Assembly (NCBI RefSeq): GCF_018861125.1
Contig: NZ_JAHKQN010000015.1
Span: 124,001 to 188,000, forward strand
DNA: 64,000 nt
DNA from: Cellulophaga baltica
GTDB taxonomy: Bacteria; Bacteroidota; Bacteroidia; Flavobacteriales; Flavobacteriaceae
Direction of reading: 5' to 3'
Below, in pieces: positions 9,912-51,590 of this stretch. The notes under the pieces are model-generated. The model worked only from the letters and a program-made list of their open reading frames with translations. It had not been told where the DNA came from and did no database searches. The stretch's first letter is position 1. The number at the start of each line of letters is the position of its first letter. The translations under genes were made by a program, and so were the position numbers.

Positions 9912-12059
9912 ATGAATTTTATGACTTCACCATTTAAAAAAGGTTTTATTTTTCTATTAAGTCTTAGTTTTGCATCTTCTTGTAAAAGTGAAAAAAAAGA
10001 TATGCCAGATAACAATTTACCTATAGCAAAAAAGGTGCCGAAAAAATTAGAAATTCATGGAGATACTAGAATTGATAATTATTATTGGTTGAATGATAGA
10101 GATAATGATGAGGTTATAGCATATCTCAATGAAGAAAAATCATATTACGATAAAATGACAGCACATACTGTTGGTTTTCAAGATTCACTTTTTGAGGAAA
10201 TGAAATCTCGTATTAAAGAAGATGATTCTTCAGTGCCTTACAGGCAAAACGGATATTGGTATGAAACACGCTATGAAATAGGAAAAGAATACCCAATATA
10301 CTCAAGAATAGAAGATAAAGCTGATGCAATATCACAAGAGTTGTTTGATTGTAATGAACTTGCAAAAGGGCATGAATATTTTAGTTTAGGAGGTATTGCA
10401 GTAAGTACCAATAATCAATTGGCTGTATTTGGAGTTGATACGGTTTCAAGGCGAGAATACACACTTAAAGTGAAAAACATATTTACGGGAGAGATTTTTG
10501 ATGATGTTATTAAAAAAACCACTGGAGGTGCAGTATGGGCAAATGACAATAAAACATTTTTTTATACTAAAAAAGACCCTGTAACCTTACGTTCGGATAA
10601 AATTTATAAGCATGTATTAGGTACCCCTGTTGAAGATGATGTATTAATATATAATGAAGAAGATGAGACGTTTAATAGTTTTGTTTATAAAACAAAGTCA
10701 AAGAAATATATAGTTATAGGTTCTTCAAGTACGTTAACATCAGAATACAGATTTATAAAAGCCGACGAGCCAAATAGTGAATTTAAGGTGTTTTCAGCTC
10801 GTGAACGTGGTTTGGAGTACTCAATAGCACATTATGATGGTAGTTTTTATGTGTTGACGAATAAAGATAAGGCTACAAATTTTAAGCTGATGAAAACATC
10901 GGAAGAGGAAACGGCTTCAAAATACTGGAAAGAGTTTATTCCACATAGAGAAAAAGTTTTACTTGAAGATATTGAGATTTTTAAAAACTACTATGTTTTA
11001 TCAGAACGTGAGAATGGTTTAAATAAGATTAAAATTGTTAAATGGAATGATAACAAAAGTTATTTTTTACCATTTGATAATGAGACGTATACGGCTTACG
11101 TAAGTACAAATCCTGATTTTGATACAGAAATACTTCGTTATGGTTACAATTCATTAACCACACCAAGTTCTGTTATTGATTTTAATATGACGACCTTAGA
11201 AAAAGAGATTAAAAAGGAGCAGGAAGTTTTAGGGGGTAAGTTTAATAAAGAAAACTACAAGTCCGAAAGAATCTGGGCAACAGCTCGTGATGGTGTAAAA
11301 ATTCCAATGTCAGTTGTGTATCATAAAAATACTAAGCTAGATGGTAATAGTCCATTACTGCAATACGCCTATGGTTCATATGGTTATACGACAGATCCTT
11401 ATTTTTCAACAGTAAGATTAAGTTTATTAGATCGTGGCTTTATTTATGTAATAGCACATGTTAGGGGTGGCGAGTATTTAGGTAGAAATTGGTATGAAGA
11501 CGGTAAGCTTTTAAAAAAGCGAAATACCTTTACTGATTTTATTGATTGTTCAAAACACTTGATTGATAAAAATTATACGAGTGAAGAGCATTTGTATGCA
11601 TTTGGCGGTTCTGCAGGTGGTTTATTAATGGGAGGAGTAGTTAATATGGCGCCGGAACTTTACAACGGTGTTATAGCTTCAGTTCCTTTTGTTGATGTTG
11701 TTACTACAATGTTAGATGATACCATACCGTTAACAACGGGTGAGTATGATGAATGGGGAAATCCTAATAATAAGGAATACTACGATTATATGAAGTCGTA
11801 TTCTCCATATGACAATGTAGAAGCTAAAAAATACCCAAATATGTTAGTAATTACTGGTTTTCATGATTCACAAGTTCAATATTGGGAGCCTGCAAAGTGG
11901 GTAGCAAAGTTAAGAGATGTTAAAAAAGATGGACATAAACTACTGTTTGATATTAACATGGATGCAGGGCACGGTGGGGCTTCAGGGCGTTTTGAAGCCT
12001 TAAAAGAAGTGGCAAAAGAATATGCTTTTCTAATTGATTTGGAAAATAAAATAAATTAA
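9912..12059 (+). CDS. S9-family prolyl oligopeptidase / oligopeptidase B-like lipoprotein
   Basis: 715 residues: a lipoprotein signal with Cys24 in FASSC, a beta-propeller domain (about 70-430) and a C-terminal alpha/beta hydrolase domain. The catalytic triad is Ser567 in FGGSAGG, Asp652 in GFHDSQV and His687 in AGHGG. Sequence around GWW-like and YGSYG motifs fits the oligopeptidase B/prolyl oligopeptidase subfamily, which cuts short peptides. Lipid anchoring would place it in the periplasm or on a membrane rather than in the cytoplasm. It stands alone on the plus strand. Confidence 0.9.
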   Translation: MNFMTSPFKKGFIFLLSLSFASSCKSEKKDMPDNNLPIAKKVPKKLEIHGDTRIDNYYWLNDRDNDEVIAYLNEEKSYYDKMTAHTVGFQDSLFEEMKSRIKEDDSSVPYRQNGYWYETRYEIGKEYPIYSRIEDKADAISQELFDCNELAKGHEYFSLGGIAVSTNNQLAVFGVDTVSRREYTLKVKNIFTGEIFDDVIKKTTGGAVWANDNKTFFYTKKDPVTLRSDKIYKHVLGTPVEDDVLIYNEEDETFNSFVYKTKSKKYIVIGSSSTLTSEYRFIKADEPNSEFKVFSARERGLEYSIAHYDGSFYVLTNKDKATNFKLMKTSEEETASKYWKEFIPHREKVLLEDIEIFKNYYVLSERENGLNKIKIVKWNDNKSYFLPFDNETYTAYVSTNPDFDTEILRYGYNSLTTPSSVIDFNMTTLEKEIKKEQEVLGGKFNKENYKSERIWATARDGVKIPMSVVYHKNTKLDGNSPLLQYAYGSYGYTTDPYFSTVRLSLLDRGFIYVIAHVRGGEYLGRNWYEDGKLLKKRNTFTDFIDCSKHLIDKNYTSEEHLYAFGGSAGGLLMGGVVNMAPELYNGVIASVPFVDVVTTMLDDTIPLTTGEYDEWGNPNNKEYYDYMKSYSPYDNVEAKKYPNMLVITGFHDSQVQYWEPAKWVAKLRDVKKDGHKLLFDINMDAGHGGASGRFEALKEVAKEYAFLIDLENKIN

Positions 12060-12147: not shown

Positions 12148-13188
12148 ATGGAAAATAAGATTGATGCTCACGACAATATTTTAGAGCTTATTGGTAACAC
12201 ACCATTAGTAAAATTAAATAGGGTAGCAGATTCATTAACTGGTAATTTTTACGCAAAAGTAGAAGCTTTTAATCCAGGACACTCTTCAAAAGATAGAATT
12301 GCTAATTATATTATTGAAGAAGCAGAACGTCAAGGTATTTTAAAAGAAGGAAGTACCATTATCGAAACAACATCAGGTAATACAGGGTTTAGTATTGCAA
12401 TGGTAAGTATAATTAAAGGTTACGATTGTATTTTAGCTGTAAGCTCAAAATCATCACCAGATAAAATTGATATGTTACGTTCAATGGGAGCTAAAGTTTA
12501 TGTGTGTCCGGCACATGTGGCACCAGAAGATCCAAGATCATATTATCAAGTAGCAAAAAGACTTCACGAAGAAACTAGCGATAGTATTTATATTAATCAA
12601 TATTTTAATAAATTAAATACTGAAGCACATTATAAAACTACTGGTCCTGAAATTTGGAAACAAACTAATGGGCAAATAACGCATTTAGTCGCTTGTAGTG
12701 GAACAGGTGGGACAATTTCTGGTACTGCACAGTTTTTGAAAGAACAAAACCCTAATGTAAAAGTTATTGGTGTTGATGCTTATGGTTCTGTGATAAAAAA
12801 ATATCATGAAACTAGAAAAATTGATACGAATGAGATTTACCCTTACCGTATTGAAGGTTTAGGTAAAAATTTAATTCCATCTTCAACAAATTTTGATGTG
12901 ATTGATTCGTTTGTGAAAGTAACAGATGAAGAAAGTGCACATACGGCTCGTGAAATTTCACGAACTGAAGGTATGTTTGTTGGGTATACGAGTGGAGCTG
13001 TTTTACAAGCAGTAAAACAACTAAATGAAGCTGGTGAATTTACTAAATATAGCAATGTAGTCGTGATTTTCCCTGACCATGGTTCTCGTTATATGAGTAA
13101 AGTCTACAGTGATCAATGGATGACTGACCAAGGTTTTTTAAATAATAAAACAGAAGAAGCTGTTCAAGAGATACAGTTTATTAAATAA
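12148..13188 (+). CDS. PLP-dependent cysteine-synthase-family enzyme, candidate cysteate synthase
   Basis: 346-residue fold-type II PLP enzyme. Lys48 in HSSKDR is the expected Schiff-base lysine. TSGNTGFS binds the substrate carboxylate and GTGGTISG the cofactor phosphate. The usual NPGGSVKDR block of cysteine synthases reads NPGHSSKDR, and the RIEGLG block resembles cystathionine beta-synthase, so the substrate may not be the ordinary O-acetylserine/sulfide pair. The next gene is an alpha-oxoamine synthase. Sulfonolipid (capnine) pathways use a PLP cysteate synthase (phosphoserine plus sulfite) followed by a cysteate fatty-acyltransferase, and this gene order fits that. Ordinary cysteine synthase remains possible. 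A terminator follows at 13210-13243. Confidence 0.75.
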
Positions 13189-13209
13189 GTTTCAAAATTT
13201 TTTAATATT

Positions 13210-13243
13210 AAAGCAATGATAATTTTACATCATTGCTTTTTTT
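13210..13243 (+). terminator. Terminator after the cysteine-synthase-like gene
   Basis: AAAGCAATGAT (13210-13220) pairs with ATCATTGCTTT (13229-13239), and the T tract continues to 13243. It separates this gene from the following alpha-oxoamine synthase gene. Confidence 0.75.
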
Positions 13244-13278
13244 GTATTCATATTTTATGAATACAACCTAAAAATCTT

Positions 13279-13286
13279 TACTTTTG
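13279..13286 (+). promoter_or_regulatory. Candidate -7 element of the alpha-oxoamine synthase gene
   Basis: TACTTTTG matches TAnnTTTG and ends 21 bases before the ATG at 13308. With the preceding terminator, this suggests that the two neighbouring PLP genes are transcribed separately. Confidence 0.45.
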
Positions 13287-13307
13287 CCGAAAATCAATTT
13301 AGTTTAA

Positions 13308-14567
13308 ATGAAAGATTTATTTGAAAGAATAATTGAGAATAAAGGACCATTAGGAAAATGGGCATCGCAAGCGGAAGGATATTTTGTATTTCCTAAGTTA
13401 GAAGGACCAATTTCTAATAGAATGAAATTCCAAGGAAAAGAAGTTCTAACATGGAGTATTAACGATTATTTAGGTCTTGCAAATTTACCTGAGATTAAAA
13501 AGGTAGATGGAGAAGCGGCTGCAGAATATGGTTCAGCATATCCTATGGGTGCGCGTATGATGAGTGGACACACTGAATTTCATGAACAATTAGAAAAAGA
13601 ATTAGCTGCTTTTTCACAAAAAGAAGCTTCTTACCTTTTAAATTTTGGATACCAAGGTTTTATGTCTGTAATTGACGCATTGGTAACAAAAGATGATATT
13701 ATTGTTTATGATGTAGACTGTCATGCATGTATTATTGATGGTGTACGTTTACACATGGGTAAGCGTTTTACTTTTACACATAACAATACTGAAAGCTTAG
13801 AGAAAAACTTAGAGCGTGCTAAAAAATTAGCAGATCAAACAGGTGGTGGTATTTTAGTTATTTCGGAAGGTGTTTTCGGAATGCGTGGTGAGCAAGGTAT
13901 TTTGAAAGAAATAGTTGCGCTTAAGAAAAAATTTAATTTTAGATTATTAGTTGATGATGCTCACGGCTTTGGTACTTTAGGTAAAACTGGTGCTGGTGCA
14001 GGTGAGGAGCAAGGTGTTCAAGATGATATAGATGTTTACTTAGCAACTTTTGCTAAGTCTATGGCTAGTATAGGGGCATTTGTTGCTGCGGATCAAGAAA
14101 TAATTGATTATTTGAAGTATAACTTACGTTCGCAAATGTTCGCAAAATCATTACCAATGGTTTATGTGAAAGGAGCATTAAAACGTTTAGATATGTTGCG
14201 TACAATGCCAGAGCTTAAAAATAAACTTTGGGAAAACGTAAATGCTTTACAAGGCGGACTTAAGGAAAGAGGTTTTGATATTGGTACAACTACAAGTTGT
14301 GTTACTCCTGTTTACTTAAATGGTAGTATTCCTGAAGCAATGGCTCTAGTTAAAGATTTACGCGAAAATCATGGTGTATTCTGTTCTATAGTTGTTTATC
14401 CGGTAATTCCTAAAGGATTAATACTATTACGTTTAATACCTACAGCTACACATACATTAGTTGATGTACAAGAAACTTTAGATGCTTTTTCTGCAATACG
14501 TGAGCGTTTAGAGAACGGTACTTATAAAAGACTTTCAGCAGCAGTAGCTGCGGCAATGGGGGAATAA
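13308..14567 (+). CDS. Alpha-oxoamine synthase: cysteate- or serine-fatty acyltransferase
   Basis: 419-residue fold-type I PLP enzyme of the family holding serine palmitoyltransferase, 8-amino-7-oxononanoate synthase and 2-amino-3-ketobutyrate ligase. The Schiff-base lysine is Lys250 in TFAKSMASIG. VDDAHGFG gives Asp216 and His219, and DCHACIIDG holds the cofactor-stacking His139. It condenses an amino acid with a fatty acyl thioester with loss of CO2, the first step of sphingoid base or capnine synthesis. The adjacent cysteine-synthase-like gene favours cysteate as substrate (sulfonolipid), while serine (ceramide) is the alternative. Sequence alone does not decide between them. No biotin genes are nearby, which argues against BioF. 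Confidence 0.8.
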   Translation: MKDLFERIIENKGPLGKWASQAEGYFVFPKLEGPISNRMKFQGKEVLTWSINDYLGLANLPEIKKVDGEAAAEYGSAYPMGARMMSGHTEFHEQLEKELAAFSQKEASYLLNFGYQGFMSVIDALVTKDDIIVYDVDCHACIIDGVRLHMGKRFTFTHNNTESLEKNLERAKKLADQTGGGILVISEGVFGMRGEQGILKEIVALKKKFNFRLLVDDAHGFGTLGKTGAGAGEEQGVQDDIDVYLATFAKSMASIGAFVAADQEIIDYLKYNLRSQMFAKSLPMVYVKGALKRLDMLRTMPELKNKLWENVNALQGGLKERGFDIGTTTSCVTPVYLNGSIPEAMALVKDLRENHGVFCSIVVYPVIPKGLILLRLIPTATHTLVDVQETLDAFSAIRERLENGTYKRLSAAVAAAMGE

Positions 14568-14585
14568 CTTCATTAGTCTACAATA

Positions 14586-14624
14586 AAAAAATCCCAAATT
14601 CTAATTTAGAATTTGGGATTTTTT
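14586..14624. terminator. Bidirectional terminator between convergent genes
   Basis: Eighteen-base perfect arms (14586-14603 and 14607-14624) with a 3-base loop, an A tract on the left and a T tract on the right. It serves both the alpha-oxoamine synthase gene ending at 14567 and the acyltransferase gene ending at 14639. Confidence 0.88.
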
Positions 14625-14638
14625 AGTTTTGTTGTAAT

Positions 14639-15757
14639 TTATAAATCTTTTCGGAATGTTTTTCTTCGTTTATAAATTTTAGGGTCAAAATTCTTCCATA
14701 TCTGCTTAATAGCGGTGTTTTCTTCTAATTCAGGTGTTCTTACACAACTTTCAATTCCCATAGCGGTAAACGTATGGTAATATTGGCTGAACATTACTGC
14801 TGTAATACCTTTGTTTTGCCAATCAGGGTGTACGCCAATTAAGTAGAAGATTACTTCTTTACTCTTTTTCTTAGCGTTTAATAAATGAAAAAGACCAGTT
14901 GGGAATAATTTACCGTTTGCTTTTTGTAATGCTTTTGAGAACGAAGGCATAACAATACCAAAGGCTATTAATTTATTGTTTTCATCAACAACAAATTTTA
15001 TGTATTCAGGATTTATAAAACTGATGTATTTTTTTTTAAAATAAGCTTTTTGAATTTCAGTAATGGGTACAAATGAAGATAATGATGCGTATGATTCATT
15101 AAATAAATCAAACATTTGATCAACCATTGGCATTAAATCTTTTGTTTTTCTGAAGTTTAAAGGTGTAACCTTGTATCTACGTTTCACTAAACTGCTTACT
15201 TTTTCAAAAAACTTAGGTTGAGCATTAGCAAATGGAAATCTATTTTCCATATATTCTTTCTCTTTGACGAATCCTAATTTTTCATAATGATTAACATAAT
15301 ACGAGTAGTTGTACCAAGTAACCATCGTGCCTATGTCTTCAAAACCTTCAGTTAATACACCAACTTTATCAAGATTAGAAAAACCAACAGGTCCTTCCAT
15401 ATATTCAAGATTTTTTTGTGTCCCAATTTCTTTTACTTTTTCAATTAAAGTTCTTGAAACCTCAAAATCATCGATAAAATCAAACCAACCAAAACGCATT
15501 TTAGATACTTTTTGTTGCTTAATTTCAATCCAGTTAACAATAGCAGCAATTCTGCCTACAATTTTACCATCTTTATAAGCTAAAAATAGTGATGCTTCAG
15601 CATCTTTAAATGCAGGGTTTTTGTCTTTATTAAAGGTTTCTAGCTCATCTTTAATAATAGGAGGAACCCAATAAGGAGAATCTTTATATAATGTAAATGG
15701 GAATTTTACAAACTTCTTTAAATCTGTAGCAGTTTTTACTTCCGTTACTTTAATCAT
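14639..15757 (-). CDS. GNAT-like acyltransferase, candidate lipid N-acyltransferase
   Basis: 372 residues. Two regions look GNAT-like: an N-terminal part with SLFLAYKDGKIVGRIAAIV (about 56-74) and a C-terminal part with IGVHPDWQNKGITAVMF (about 308-324), the latter resembling the acyl-CoA-binding loop. No signal peptide or transmembrane segment is seen. Homologues in this phylum are usually unnamed N-acetyltransferases. The gene faces the alpha-oxoamine synthase across a shared terminator. Because bacterial ceramide synthase has, to my recall, been described as a GNAT-type protein, N-acylation of the capnine or sphingoid base made next door is a reasonable hypothesis. It is inference from context. 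Confidence 0.65.
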   Translation of the reverse strand: MIKVTEVKTATDLKKFVKFPFTLYKDSPYWVPPIIKDELETFNKDKNPAFKDAEASLFLAYKDGKIVGRIAAIVNWIEIKQQKVSKMRFGWFDFIDDFEVSRTLIEKVKEIGTQKNLEYMEGPVGFSNLDKVGVLTEGFEDIGTMVTWYNYSYYVNHYEKLGFVKEKEYMENRFPFANAQPKFFEKVSSLVKRRYKVTPLNFRKTKDLMPMVDQMFDLFNESYASLSSFVPITEIQKAYFKKKYISFINPEYIKFVVDENNKLIAFGIVMPSFSKALQKANGKLFPTGLFHLLNAKKKSKEVIFYLIGVHPDWQNKGITAVMFSQYYHTFTAMGIESCVRTPELEENTAIKQIWKNFDPKIYKRRKTFRKDL

Positions 15758-15861: not shown

Positions 15862-16917
15862 CTAAAAGTCAATGGTGCCACTTTCTTTTTGTTTCTTTTT
15901 CTCAGCTTTCTTGAGTTTTTTAAGTTGCTTTTTACTTGGGCCTAAATCAACATCTTCGGCACCACCATCTTTTTTCTTCTCCTTCTTAGTCTTCTTTTTC
16001 ATGTCTTTACGACCAATTTGACCATTTTCCCCAGCTTTTTGCTCATCAATAGGGACAAGCTTATCTTTATGCATATCTAATCGGTATGATACTCCTAATT
16101 TACCGAATATACGAGTAGGAGTGTCTTTAAAGCTACCTCCAAAAGTAACATCGGCTTGTAAATTCTTTTTAAATAAGTGAGCAATACCTGTTCTATATAA
16201 AATATCAGCATAGCGATCACCTTTAATGCCTTGATTTTCAATAAAAACACTCCACTTAGGGTTTCTAAAAGCATGTGTTAATGAAACAATGTAACTTAAT
16301 TCAGGGTCTTCAGTACCAATACGATCATAAGCAATGTTTGAAATAAATACAACTCTTGGTGATATTTTACTTTGTGTAGCAATCATAACTCTTGGAGCTA
16401 CAATTCCTGCATCAGGATAATAAGGGTTATCACCAATAACAAAAGTCGCACCTGCGTAAATTGATACTGCTGGTATTAAATTTCTCCATTGAAATTTATG
16501 ATTAGCTCTCCAACTTATTAAATTAGGTTTATTGCGTTCTGGATTTTTATACGGGTCGTAAACCAAATATTTTAATCCAATTCTATTTCTTGAAAAATCG
16601 GTGATACTATTGTTATAAATTGTATTGTCATATGAAAGTTCTTCTTTTTGAAAAGTACCTTCATAGTATATTTCTAAACTCTCAAATAAAAGTCCGTATC
16701 GTAAAGCAATATCGGTGCTTAATATATTGGAATCGCTTAATAATAAACTATGCTCTTGTTGCTCATAACCAATACCAAATTCTGCTTGAATCACGTTTTT
16801 ACCTACTGCATAAGCGCTAACGGACTCTCCTGGTCTGTTTGAATTTATAACATCAGTGTATTGTGCTGATGCAATTATTGAGCATAGCAAAAAGGAAATA
16901 TAGATTAGATTTTTCAT
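15862..16917 (-). CDS. Outer-membrane porin-like protein (phenol_MetA_deg-like) with Lys-rich tail
   Basis: 351 residues. A signal peptide (ending IIASAQ) is followed by an aromatic and alternating beta-barrel-like region (about 20-280) containing INSNRPGES near the start, as in MetA-pathway-of-phenol-degradation transporter-like proteins of Bacteroidota. Residues about 290-351 form a very basic, Lys-rich segment ending in GTIDF, which is unusual for a barrel terminus and probably periplasmic or extracellular. The substrate is unknown. It is divergent from the DUF4834 gene. Confidence 0.65.
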   Translation of the reverse strand: MKNLIYISFLLCSIIASAQYTDVINSNRPGESVSAYAVGKNVIQAEFGIGYEQQEHSLLLSDSNILSTDIALRYGLLFESLEIYYEGTFQKEELSYDNTIYNNSITDFSRNRIGLKYLVYDPYKNPERNKPNLISWRANHKFQWRNLIPAVSIYAGATFVIGDNPYYPDAGIVAPRVMIATQSKISPRVVFISNIAYDRIGTEDPELSYIVSLTHAFRNPKWSVFIENQGIKGDRYADILYRTGIAHLFKKNLQADVTFGGSFKDTPTRIFGKLGVSYRLDMHKDKLVPIDEQKAGENGQIGRKDMKKKTKKEKKKDGGAEDVDLGPSKKQLKKLKKAEKKKQKESGTIDF

Positions 16918-49494: not shown

Positions 49495-50445
49495 TTATTT
49501 TAGAAGATTGGTAATTTTAGAGGCTAATTCTAATCCAATTCTACTTTGAGCTTCTTGTGTAGCTCCACCAATATGTGGTGTTAATGATATATCTGGGTGC
49601 ATTAAAATTGGAATCTCTGGTTTTGGTTCAGATTCAAATACATCTAAACCTGCAAAAGATACTTTTCTTTGTTTTAAAGCATCAACTAAAGCAACTTCAT
49701 CTAAAGCACCACCACGAGATGTGTTGATGATACCAACGCCATCTTTCATGCTATTAAATTCACTTTTGCCAATAACGTAAGCAGTTTGTTTAGGCGTATG
49801 AATTGTAATAAAATCAGAAGTTTTTAATAATTCTTCTTTCGGAGTATTGCTTAAATTGAAGGAAACTTCTTGTCCGTCAAAAAATGGAATAGAAACAGTC
49901 ATCTTTTCAACTTCAGTATCGTGATATATAACTTTCATACCCACACCTAGTGCAATTTTAGCTGTAGCTTGTCCAATTTTACCAAAACCAATAATACCTA
50001 AGGTTTTTCCTTTTAATTCAGAACCCTTAGCGTAACTTTTCTTTAGCTCTTTAAATTTACTATCACCATCTAATGGCATATTTCTGTTCGAATCATATAA
50101 ATAACGAACACCACCATATAAATGTGCGAATACTAACTCAGCAACAGAAGCAGAGGAAGCTTCAGGGGTATTTATGACATGAATACCTTTCTTTTCAGCA
50201 TAAGCAACATCAATATTATCTAAACCAACGCCACCACGACCTATTAATTTTAAATTAGGACATTCATCAATTATATCTTTTTGAACTTGTGTAGCGCTAC
50301 GTACTAAAAGAACTTCAATATTTCGAGTATTTATATAGCTTATCAGTTGCTCTTGAGCAACATTTACAGTTAGTACTTCAAAACCATTTGCCTTTAAGGC
50401 TTCAACACCTTCTTGGGCAATTCCATCATTTGCTAATATTCTCAT
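49495..50445 (-). CDS. serA: D-2-hydroxyacid dehydrogenase (phosphoglycerate dehydrogenase type)
   Basis: 316 residues of the short form without an ACT domain. The NAD-binding motif GFGKIGQAT and the active-site region with RGGALDE and His in PHIGG are present. It would convert 3-phosphoglycerate to 3-phosphohydroxypyruvate, the first step of serine synthesis. The gene for the next enzyme, SerC, lies directly upstream, which makes this assignment stronger than the fold alone. The lack of ACT suggests no classical serine feedback. A strong hairpin separates the two genes. Confidence 0.88.
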   Translation of the reverse strand: MRILANDGIAQEGVEALKANGFEVLTVNVAQEQLISYINTRNIEVLLVRSATQVQKDIIDECPNLKLIGRGGVGLDNIDVAYAEKKGIHVINTPEASSASVAELVFAHLYGGVRYLYDSNRNMPLDGDSKFKELKKSYAKGSELKGKTLGIIGFGKIGQATAKIALGVGMKVIYHDTEVEKMTVSIPFFDGQEVSFNLSNTPKEELLKTSDFITIHTPKQTAYVIGKSEFNSMKDGVGIINTSRGGALDEVALVDALKQRKVSFAGLDVFESEPKPEIPILMHPDISLTPHIGGATQEAQSRIGLELASKITNLLK

Positions 50446-50525: not shown

Positions 50526-51590
50526 TTATGCTTTTCTTTCCATTTCACTCATTACATCTACTAAAACACCTACGCTCTCAAGAGACATAGCGTTATACAT
50601 AGACGCTCTATAACCACCAATTGATCTGTGACCGTTAATGCCACTAACACCAGCTTCTTTCCACATAGCATCAAAAGTATCTTTTAATTTTTCATCAGTT
50701 AAAGTGAAGGTAGCATTCATTGTAGATCTGTCTTCTTCTTTAGCGTATCCTTTAAACACGGGGTTTAAATCTATTTCAGAATATAATAATTGCGCTTTCT
50801 TATTATTAAGTTCTTCAATTACAGAAATTCCGCCTAAACCTTTAAGCCATTCTAAATTTAACATTGTAGTGTATACAGGAAAAACAGCAGGAGTATTAAA
50901 CATACTCTCTTTTGCTATTTGTATTTGGTAATCAAGTATAGAAGGTATTTTTCTAGTTACTTTACCTAAAATATCTTCTTTTATAATTACTAATTGTGTA
51001 CCTGAAGGACCCATGTTTTTTTGTGCTCCTGCATATATTAAATCAAACTGAGAAAAATCTAATTGTCTTGAGAAAATATCAGAACTCATATCACAAACTA
51101 ACGGAATGTTCACTTTAGGGAACGTTTTCATTTGAGTTCCGTAAATTGTATTGTTAGAGGTAATGTGTAAATAATCTAAATCATTAGGTACGCCAAACAT
51201 TTTAGGAATGTGATTAAAACCTTCCTCTTTAGATGACGCTACTTCAACCACTTCTCCGAATAATTTTGCTTCTTTAATTGCATTATTACTCCAAGTACCT
51301 GTATTTAAATAGCCTGCTTTTGTTTCTAAAAGATTGTATGCAACTCTAATGAATTCCATACTTGCGCCCCCTGTTAAAAATAAGGCTTTATATCCTTTAT
51401 CCTCAAGGTCTAAAATTTCTAAAGCTAAAGCTCTAGCATTCTCTATAACTTCTACAAATTCTTTGCTTCTGTGCGACATCTCTATTAAAGATAATCCAGA
51501 GCCATTAAAATCTTGTACGGCTTCAGAAGCTTTTAGTAAAACTTCTTGTGGTAAAATACATGGACCTGCGCTAAAATTGTGCTTTTTCAT
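50526..51590 (-). CDS. serC: 3-phosphoserine/phosphohydroxythreonine aminotransferase
   Basis: 354 residues, PLP-dependent fold type I. The Lys in GAQKNMGPSG is the cofactor-binding lysine. The start HNFSAGPCILP and the end RSIGGYRASMYNA are family hallmarks. It makes O-phospho-L-serine from 3-phosphohydroxypyruvate with glutamate. Because the candidate cysteate synthase elsewhere in the window may also use phosphoserine, this pathway could feed it. It lies between serA and the acyl-CoA reductase gene on the same strand. Confidence 0.95.
   Translation of the reverse strand: MKKHNFSAGPCILPQEVLLKASEAVQDFNGSGLSLIEMSHRSKEFVEVIENARALALEILDLEDKGYKALFLTGGASMEFIRVAYNLLETKAGYLNTGTWSNNAIKEAKLFGEVVEVASSKEEGFNHIPKMFGVPNDLDYLHITSNNTIYGTQMKTFPKVNIPLVCDMSSDIFSRQLDFSQFDLIYAGAQKNMGPSGTQLVIIKEDILGKVTRKIPSILDYQIQIAKESMFNTPAVFPVYTTMLNLEWLKGLGGISVIEELNNKKAQLLYSEIDLNPVFKGYAKEEDRSTMNATFTLTDEKLKDTFDAMWKEAGVSGINGHRSIGGYRASMYNAMSLESVGVLVDVMSEMERKA

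What the first reader, a model, noticed from the sequence alone, without database searches (positions are those of the whole stretch)
12148..15757. Candidate sulfonolipid (capnine) or sphingolipid locus: cysteine-synthase-like enzyme, alpha-oxoamine synthase and GNAT acyltransferase side by side
The cysteine-synthase-like enzyme carries NPGHSSKDR where cysteine synthases have NPGGSVKDR, and the next gene is an alpha-oxoamine synthase of the serine palmitoyltransferase group. Published capnine pathways in Bacteroidota use a PLP cysteate synthase (from phosphoserine and sulfite) and a cysteate fatty-acyltransferase. A GNAT-type acyltransferase faces this pair across a shared terminator and could N-acylate the base. 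serC elsewhere in the window makes phosphoserine. The third-gene role is my inference, and a keto-reductase is not in the window.
Basis: partly seen in the sequence, partly recalled or inferred. Interest (0 to 1): 0.75.

Follow-up and report, generated by a model that had tools for sequence, protein, structure and literature searches.

The report
Capnine genes beside a ceramide-synthase-like acyltransferase
Two neighbouring genes of this Flavobacteriaceae-type bacterium look like the known enzymes that build the backbone of sulfur-containing membrane lipids, and the facing gene belongs to the bacterial ceramide-synthase family and may perform the still unassigned last step, adding the second fatty chain.

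Summary
Gene 1 (12148-13188) is a cysteate synthase, CapA (NCBIfam equivalog, 651.9 bits, cut-off 600). Gene 2 (13308-14567) is a cysteate fatty-acyltransferase, CapB/SulA: it carries Lys280, the residue that separates SulA from serine palmitoyltransferase (Lys in 115 of 115 CapB-type rows, Ala in 47 of 47 SPT-type rows). This pair is a published pathway. The new part is gene 3 (14639-15757): a full-length homologue of E. coli YghO, of the bCerS family of ceramide N-acyltransferases, for which Pfam and NCBIfam scans gave no specific model. Elsewhere in Bacteroidota relatives sit directly beside SPT (46 of 94 fetched loci, one a natural fusion), 20 of them with a CerR-like gene. Capnine N-acylation is thus the best guess, but three results weaken it. 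Adjacency to CapB is kept no better than that of unrelated genes. The steadiest partner is an outer-membrane-type gene. And 59 of 218 CapB-bearing genomes of the class lack a strong family match, while 8 of 29 CapB-less ones carry gene 3's own branch. Five relatives lack gene 3 in an otherwise collinear locus: a natural test. I judge it a known pathway plus a useful, unproven enzyme assignment.

The parts
12148..13188 (+). capA: PLP-dependent cysteate synthase (phosphoserine + sulfite to cysteate)
   Evidence: NCBIfam NF053679 CysteaSynCapA 651.9 bits, cut-off 600; best solved structure 9k2p 519 bits, next a cystathionine beta-synthase at 276; upstream of capB in 79 of 80 named loci
13308..14567 (+). 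capB/sulA: cysteate fatty-acyltransferase (3-ketocapnine synthase); PLP lysine K250, diagnostic K280
   Evidence: 28eh 'Cysteate-C-fatty acyltransferase' 721 bits, 7u7h 563, SPT 3a2b 241; K280 aligns with SulA K281; Lys in 115 of 115 CapB-type and Ala in 47 of 47 SPT-type rows, duplicates and fragments included
14586..14624 (.). perfect 18-bp inverted repeat with A/T-rich ends between the convergent genes; terminator-like on +, use by both genes inferred
14639..15757 (-). tandem-GNAT acyltransferase of the YghO/bCerS (bacterial ceramide synthase) family; proposed capnine N-acyltransferase
15862..16917 (-). Phenol_MetA_deg-family protein (taken for an outer-membrane barrel), upstream of and co-directional with the GNAT; likely the same transcription unit
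   Evidence: Pfam PF13557 9.2e-34; within 300 bp of the GNAT on the same strand in 48 of 52 named loci, found in 14 of 14 family-f1 loci and beside the GNAT in 7 of 7 fetched relocated loci
9912..12059 (+). S9 prolyl oligopeptidase, conserved neighbour upstream of capA (control for synteny; no role proposed)
   Evidence: Pfam; kept in 68 of 69 full-flank CapB loci
50526..51590 (-). serC phosphoserine aminotransferase (precursor supply)
   Evidence: NCBIfam PRK05355 448.5 bits, cut-off 253
49495..50445 (-). phosphoglycerate-dehydrogenase-like gene (below the curated cut-off)
   Evidence: TIGR01327 278 bits, cut-off 454

Best explanation
This is a sulfonolipid (capnine) biosynthesis locus. CapA makes cysteate from phosphoserine and sulfite; CapB condenses cysteate with a fatty acyl thioester to 3-ketocapnine; a reductase encoded elsewhere reduces it. 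The first two steps are assigned by family and diagnostic residues, the reductase is assumed. The facing gene is a tandem-GNAT acyltransferase of the bacterial ceramide synthase (YghO/bCerS) family. Most likely it transfers a second acyl chain to the amine of capnine or 3-ketocapnine, giving N-acylcapnines such as sulfobacins, as its SPT-linked relatives are thought to do for sphingoid bases. That substrate is inferred. Split confidence: CapA/CapB about 0.95; YghO/bCerS family membership about 0.95; capnine as the substrate of this protein about 0.5.
For: CapA equivalog above cut-off. CapB: 721 bits to a cysteate acyltransferase structure, 241 to SPT; Lys280 diagnostic, 115 of 115 against 0 of 47 rows. 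GNAT against E. coli YghO: hhalign 99.9%, 365 columns, 26% identity; YghO is listed as homologue of Caulobacter CC_1154, which is needed for dihydroceramide formation (PMC9386255 passages; PMC11324152 passages). Family members beside SPT in 45 of 94 fetched loci plus one single-ORF fusion, in 17 families by the labels; CerR-like gene in 20 of these loci. The host genome shows no SPT-class enzyme, yet keeps the GNAT; of 33 CapB+ SPT- genomes 30 have a family member. Leeuwenhoekiella polynyae has it at 51%; another species of that genus contains sulfobacin A (PMC9859067 passages).
Against: Adjacency to CapB is conserved synteny: GNAT in 47 of 69 full-flank loci, unrelated downstream genes in 47-50, S9 peptidase in 68. 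The GNAT's steadiest partner is the MetA-like gene. 59 of 218 CapB+ genomes of the class have no strong family match (48 none at E 1e-5). The window's own branch (E <= 1e-60) occurs in 30 of 218 CapB+ and 8 of 29 CapB- genomes and in 11 CapB-less genomes of the phylum sample; one member sits in a cerR-GNAT-SPT cluster (L131). 0 of 27 genomes of genus g4 (taken for Psychroflexus) have it although 26 of 27 have CapB. 3 of 7 genomes without SPT or CapB still have a match. No reductase was placed. The 94 loci were my choice from the list, with most of family f15 left out, whose 5 fetched loci have no SPT neighbour; 46 of 94 is not an unbiased rate.
Confidence: 0.5

Rival explanations
1. The GNAT is an N-acyltransferase of the ceramide-synthase family but acts on another long-chain amine or amino-acid lipid, together with the co-directional MetA-like gene; it lies beside capAB only by inherited gene order.
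For: MetA-GNAT pair steady in family f1; synteny control; the same branch in CapB-less genomes; in three loci of family f21 it sits with genes that I read by eye as ketosynthase, FabZ-like and glycosyltransferase (L140, L129, L136; no family search).
Against: The functional clues to the family point to sphingoid bases (SPT neighbours, fusion, CerR-like neighbours), and the host shows no SPT-class enzyme, which leaves capnine as its only evident sphingoid-like base.
Confidence: 0.35
2. The GNAT is an ordinary small-molecule or protein acetyltransferase with no role in lipids.
For: Only generic GNAT Pfam matches; fold neighbours include acetyltransferases such as glucosamine N-acetyltransferase and mycothiol synthase.
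Against: Full-length homology to YghO and to SPT-linked and SPT-fused proteins.
Confidence: 0.1
3. The pair is a sphingolipid locus (serine palmitoyltransferase with a cysteine synthase).
For: Both enzymes belong to those superfamilies.
Against: CapA above and SPT far below their curated cut-offs; Lys280; no SPT-model match in the genome at 1e-100.
Confidence: 0.03

Closest known systems
CapA/CapB capnine pathway (Capnocytophaga ochracea CapA/CapB, Flavobacterium johnsoniae Fjoh_2419, Chryseobacterium gleum Cys/CFAT, Alistipes finegoldii SulA)
   Same: Same two enzymes by equivalog score, best structure matches and diagnostic lysine; side by side here and in 79 of 80 named Flavobacteriaceae loci.
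   Different: Nothing essential found; another member.
bCerS (Caulobacter CC_1154/CCNA_01212), E. coli YghO, CerS of Bacteroides fragilis BF9343_4218
   Same: Full-length tandem-GNAT homology to YghO (26% over 365 columns); SPT-linked relatives in 17 families of the phylum sample.
   Different: The window protein lies in a diverged branch (YghO scores it 107.7 bits against 236-271 for the 24 best-scoring members), in a genome without an SPT-class enzyme. CC_1154 and BF9343_4218 themselves were not compared.
Serine palmitoyltransferase (Sphingobacterium multivorum 3a2b)
   Same: Same superfamily and PLP lysine as CapB.
   Different: Ala where CapB has Lys280; only 241 bits.

Membership tests
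Cysteate synthase CapA | NCBIfam NF053679 above its curated cut-off | tested here: met
   651.9 against 600
Cysteate synthase CapA | cysteate formation from phosphoserine and sulfite | not testable with these tools
   needs an assay
Cysteate fatty-acyltransferase CapB/SulA | Lys at SulA position 281, Ala in SPT | tested here: met
   K280 in the window; 115 of 115 CapB-type rows Lys, 47 of 47 SPT-type rows Ala
Cysteate fatty-acyltransferase CapB/SulA | closest solved relative is a cysteate acyltransferase | tested here: met
   28eh 721 bits over 1-419
Serine palmitoyltransferase | NCBIfam SPT models above cut-off | tested here: not met
   291 of 640, 280 of 500, 204 of 670 bits
YghO/bCerS acyltransferase sequence family | full-length homology to YghO | tested here: met
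   hhalign E 8.6e-35, 365 columns; phmmer 107.7 bits
YghO/bCerS acyltransferase sequence family | direct homology to the Caulobacter protein CC_1154/CCNA_01212 | not tested
   sequence not at hand; the link to YghO is from PMC9386255 passages
Ceramide synthase by function | an SPT in the genome to supply a sphingoid base | tested here: not met
   no SPT-class match in the host; best CerR-profile match 134 bits, not a clear orthologue. So not claimed as a ceramide synthase, only as a member of its sequence family
Sulfonolipid N-acyltransferase | N-acylates capnine in vivo or in vitro | not testable with these tools
   needs mutant lipidomics or an assay
Sulfonolipid N-acyltransferase | co-distribution with CapB beyond chance | tested here: inconclusive
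   strong family matches in 159 of 218 CapB+ and 14 of 29 CapB- genomes, odds ratio 2.9, p 0.009; at E <= 1e-5 170 of 218 and 19 of 29, odds ratio 1.9, p 0.16; not corrected for kinship

The most novel reading that the evidence does not exclude
Ceramide-type and sulfonolipid-type lipids of Bacteroidota are finished by one acyltransferase family (YghO/bCerS), and this gene is the so far unassigned fourth enzyme of sulfonolipid synthesis, the capnine N-acyltransferase. Lineages that lack it while keeping capAB (Gramella, Christiangramia, Salegentibacter, Gillisia, Mesonia, Psychroflexus) should then contain free capnine or a replacement enzyme.
Probability: 0.45. Interest if true: 0.6.

Novelty: new member of a known kind. 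Interest (0 to 1): 0.42.

Why it matters
Sulfonolipids are linked to gliding, to choanoflagellate development and to control of inflammation (PMC11211663, introduction). Three enzymes are named in the papers seen here; the N-acylation step that makes the final lipids has none there. The gene proposed here has ready tests, including species that lack it in an otherwise intact locus, and it would join sulfonolipid and ceramide synthesis under one acyltransferase family that annotation leaves as plain GNAT.

Tried and rejected
Rejected: ORF1 as CysK/CysM/CBS; ORF2 as SPT; a sphingolipid reading.

Rejected as evidence: adjacency of GNAT and CapB. It looked decisive (52 of 80 named loci, all 52 convergent, 43 of 52 with a gap under 440 bp) until the control showed equal retention of unrelated neighbours.

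Rejected as mine: the idea that GNAT-less genus g4 is Capnocytophaga. The best named match of its CapB is Psychroflexus curvus at 94%, and G053's contig has the same length as that record, 510,259 bases. Capnocytophaga itself could not be reached; all 12 genome searches are used.

Literature: the listings showed me no paper naming a sulfonolipid N-acyltransferase. Several were cut (20 of 27 listed; 40 of 68; 30 of 155), I saw only titles, abstract openings and the passages cited, and most subscription journals are missing, so absence from print is not shown. Liu 2022, Hou 2022, Vences-Guzman 2021, Stankeviciute 2022 and Godchaux and Leadbetter 1983 were not read (recalled, or seen in reference lists).
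Full report
What is there. The first is CapA: it passes the curated equivalog cut-off for cysteate synthase (651.9 against 600 bits) and misses those for cysteine and cystathionine synthases. Its best solved relative is 9k2p (519 bits); the next is a cystathionine beta-synthase at 276. The second is CapB/SulA: 721 bits over its whole length to a chain named cysteate-C-fatty acyltransferase (28eh), 563 to 7u7h (which I take for the A. finegoldii SulA structure; the PDB name is '7-keto-8-aminopelargonate synthetase-like enzyme'), 241 to a true SPT. The SulA paper (PMC9304779, abstract and passages) names Lys281 as the one clear active-site difference from SPT and reports that serine is not a substrate. 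In 7u7h, numbered from its methionine, residue 281 is that lysine; the window has Lys280 there and the PLP lysine at 250. In an alignment of 162 alpha-oxoamine synthase rows from the loci held (some duplicates and fragments), the position is Lys in 115 of 115 CapB-type rows and Ala in 47 of 47 SPT-type rows. A perfect 18-bp inverted repeat separates the convergent genes. serC lies in the window.

The family across Bacteroidota. In 148 genomes at least 90% complete, 140 have a match at E <= 1e-3. I fetched 94 loci from that list, chosen for spread and leaving out most of family f15: 45 have an SPT-type gene within 600 bp on the same strand, one is a single ORF with SPT and acyltransferase fused (L189, G128; one genome only), one has CapB 6.9 kb away, 47 have neither (some of these run into contig ends). 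The 46 span 17 families by the labels, and 20 of them also carry a CerR-like gene. Counting SPT as NF047600 matches of at least 393 bits (my threshold; only 4 genomes exceed the curated 640) and CapB as at least 435 bits, 108 genomes have SPT, 54 CapB, 21 both, 7 neither. A family member is in 137 of the 141 with either (missing in G053, G041, G064 and G024) and in 3 of the 7 with neither. Of the 33 with CapB and no SPT, 30 have one; these include the host. Kinship was not corrected for.

Tree. 120 of the 160 usable rows were used (named ones thinned to one in five; proteins under 300 aa and duplicate loci dropped before). Rooted on YghO, itself a long branch, there are two large groups. One (72 rows, support 86) holds 45 SPT-linked rows including the fusion and 27 unlinked. 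The other (47 rows, support 100) holds the window, all 20 CapB-linked rows in the tree, one row 6.9 kb from CapB, 25 unlinked, and one SPT-linked row (L131, in a cerR-GNAT-SPT cluster). Eleven of the unlinked rows come from genomes without CapB, so this group is not dedicated to capnine.

Neighbourhood control. In 80 named Flavobacteriaceae CapB loci, CapA is upstream of CapB in 79 and the GNAT is downstream and convergent in 52. But among the 69 loci with full flanks the S9 peptidase is kept in 68, CapA in 68, the GNAT in 47, the MetA-like gene in 50, YfhO in 49 and a glycosyltransferase in 47. The GNAT is therefore no more attached to CapB than bystanders are. Its steadiest partner is the MetA-like gene: within 300 bp on the same strand in 48 of 52 named loci, present in 14 of 14 f1 loci, and beside it in all 7 relocated loci that I fetched, of 17 found. 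Of the 28 named loci without a nearby GNAT, 27 genomes could be searched: 17 have it elsewhere (46-70% identity), 10 do not (four of the ten are metagenome assemblies that may be incomplete). In five of the ten (Mesonia, Gramella, Christiangramia, Salegentibacter, Gillisia) it alone is missing from an otherwise collinear block. All 27 genomes of genus g4 lack it while 26 have CapB; g4 is taken for Psychroflexus.

Class-wide test. In 247 genomes of the class CapB (E <= 1e-110) is in 218. A family profile finds a strong member in 159 of 218 CapB+ and 14 of 29 CapB- genomes (odds ratio 2.9, p 0.009); with 16 weak matches counted, 170 and 19 (p 0.16). The window's own branch is in 30 of 218 and 8 of 29. 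So the family often, but not always, goes with CapB, and the 59 CapB+ genomes without a strong member must use something else or leave capnine bare. A bare form is real chemistry: free capnine is reported in Capnocytophaga (PMC9304779 passages).

Mechanism. Shown by sequence: CapA and CapB identity, the inverted repeat, family membership of gene 3. Inferred: serC supplies phosphoserine; a reductase elsewhere acts as CapC (in two other species several unlinked reductases do this; PMC11211663, two of its five parts and passages); the GNAT places the second acyl chain on the amine, before or after reduction, an order disputed for Caulobacter (PMC11087976 passages). I put capnine as its substrate at about one half.

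Verdict. As a finding it is a further member of a published pathway; the facing gene is a good, testable candidate for the unassigned last enzyme, with real evidence against exclusivity.

Noticed in passing
L189:3992-6379 (-), G128:C73: One continuous ORF of about 795 aa fuses an SPT to a YghO-family acyltransferase: a natural one-protein candidate for two ceramide steps. Seen in one genome.
   Followed up: partly
21 of 148 genomes (family f21, G033, G091, G099): Genomes carry both a CapB-type and an SPT-type enzyme, although a review (PMC10191378, passages) says production of sulfonolipids and sphingolipids may be mutually exclusive in Bacteroidota.
   Followed up: partly
218 of 247 genomes of the class: CapB-type enzymes (E <= 1e-110) are in 88% of this class sample, so sulfonolipids may be commoner than reported.
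   Followed up: no
window 15862-16917 and 14639-15757: A MetA-like (Phenol_MetA_deg) gene and the GNAT form a steady co-directional pair in family f1 and the named Flavobacteriaceae; its role is unknown.
   Followed up: partly
L140:10866-15746 (also L129, L136): In three loci of family f21 the GNAT sits with genes that look by eye like ketosynthase, FabZ-like and glycosyltransferase (and, in L140, an SDR), with CapB 6.9 kb away in L140: a possible acyl-chain module.
   Followed up: no
window 9912-12059: An S9 prolyl oligopeptidase is kept near capA in 68 of 69 full-flank named loci, as often as capA itself.
   Followed up: no
Pfam and NCBIfam: Scans of YghO and two relatives found no specific model for the YghO/bCerS family, so such proteins are probably annotated as plain GNAT or not at all.
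   Followed up: no
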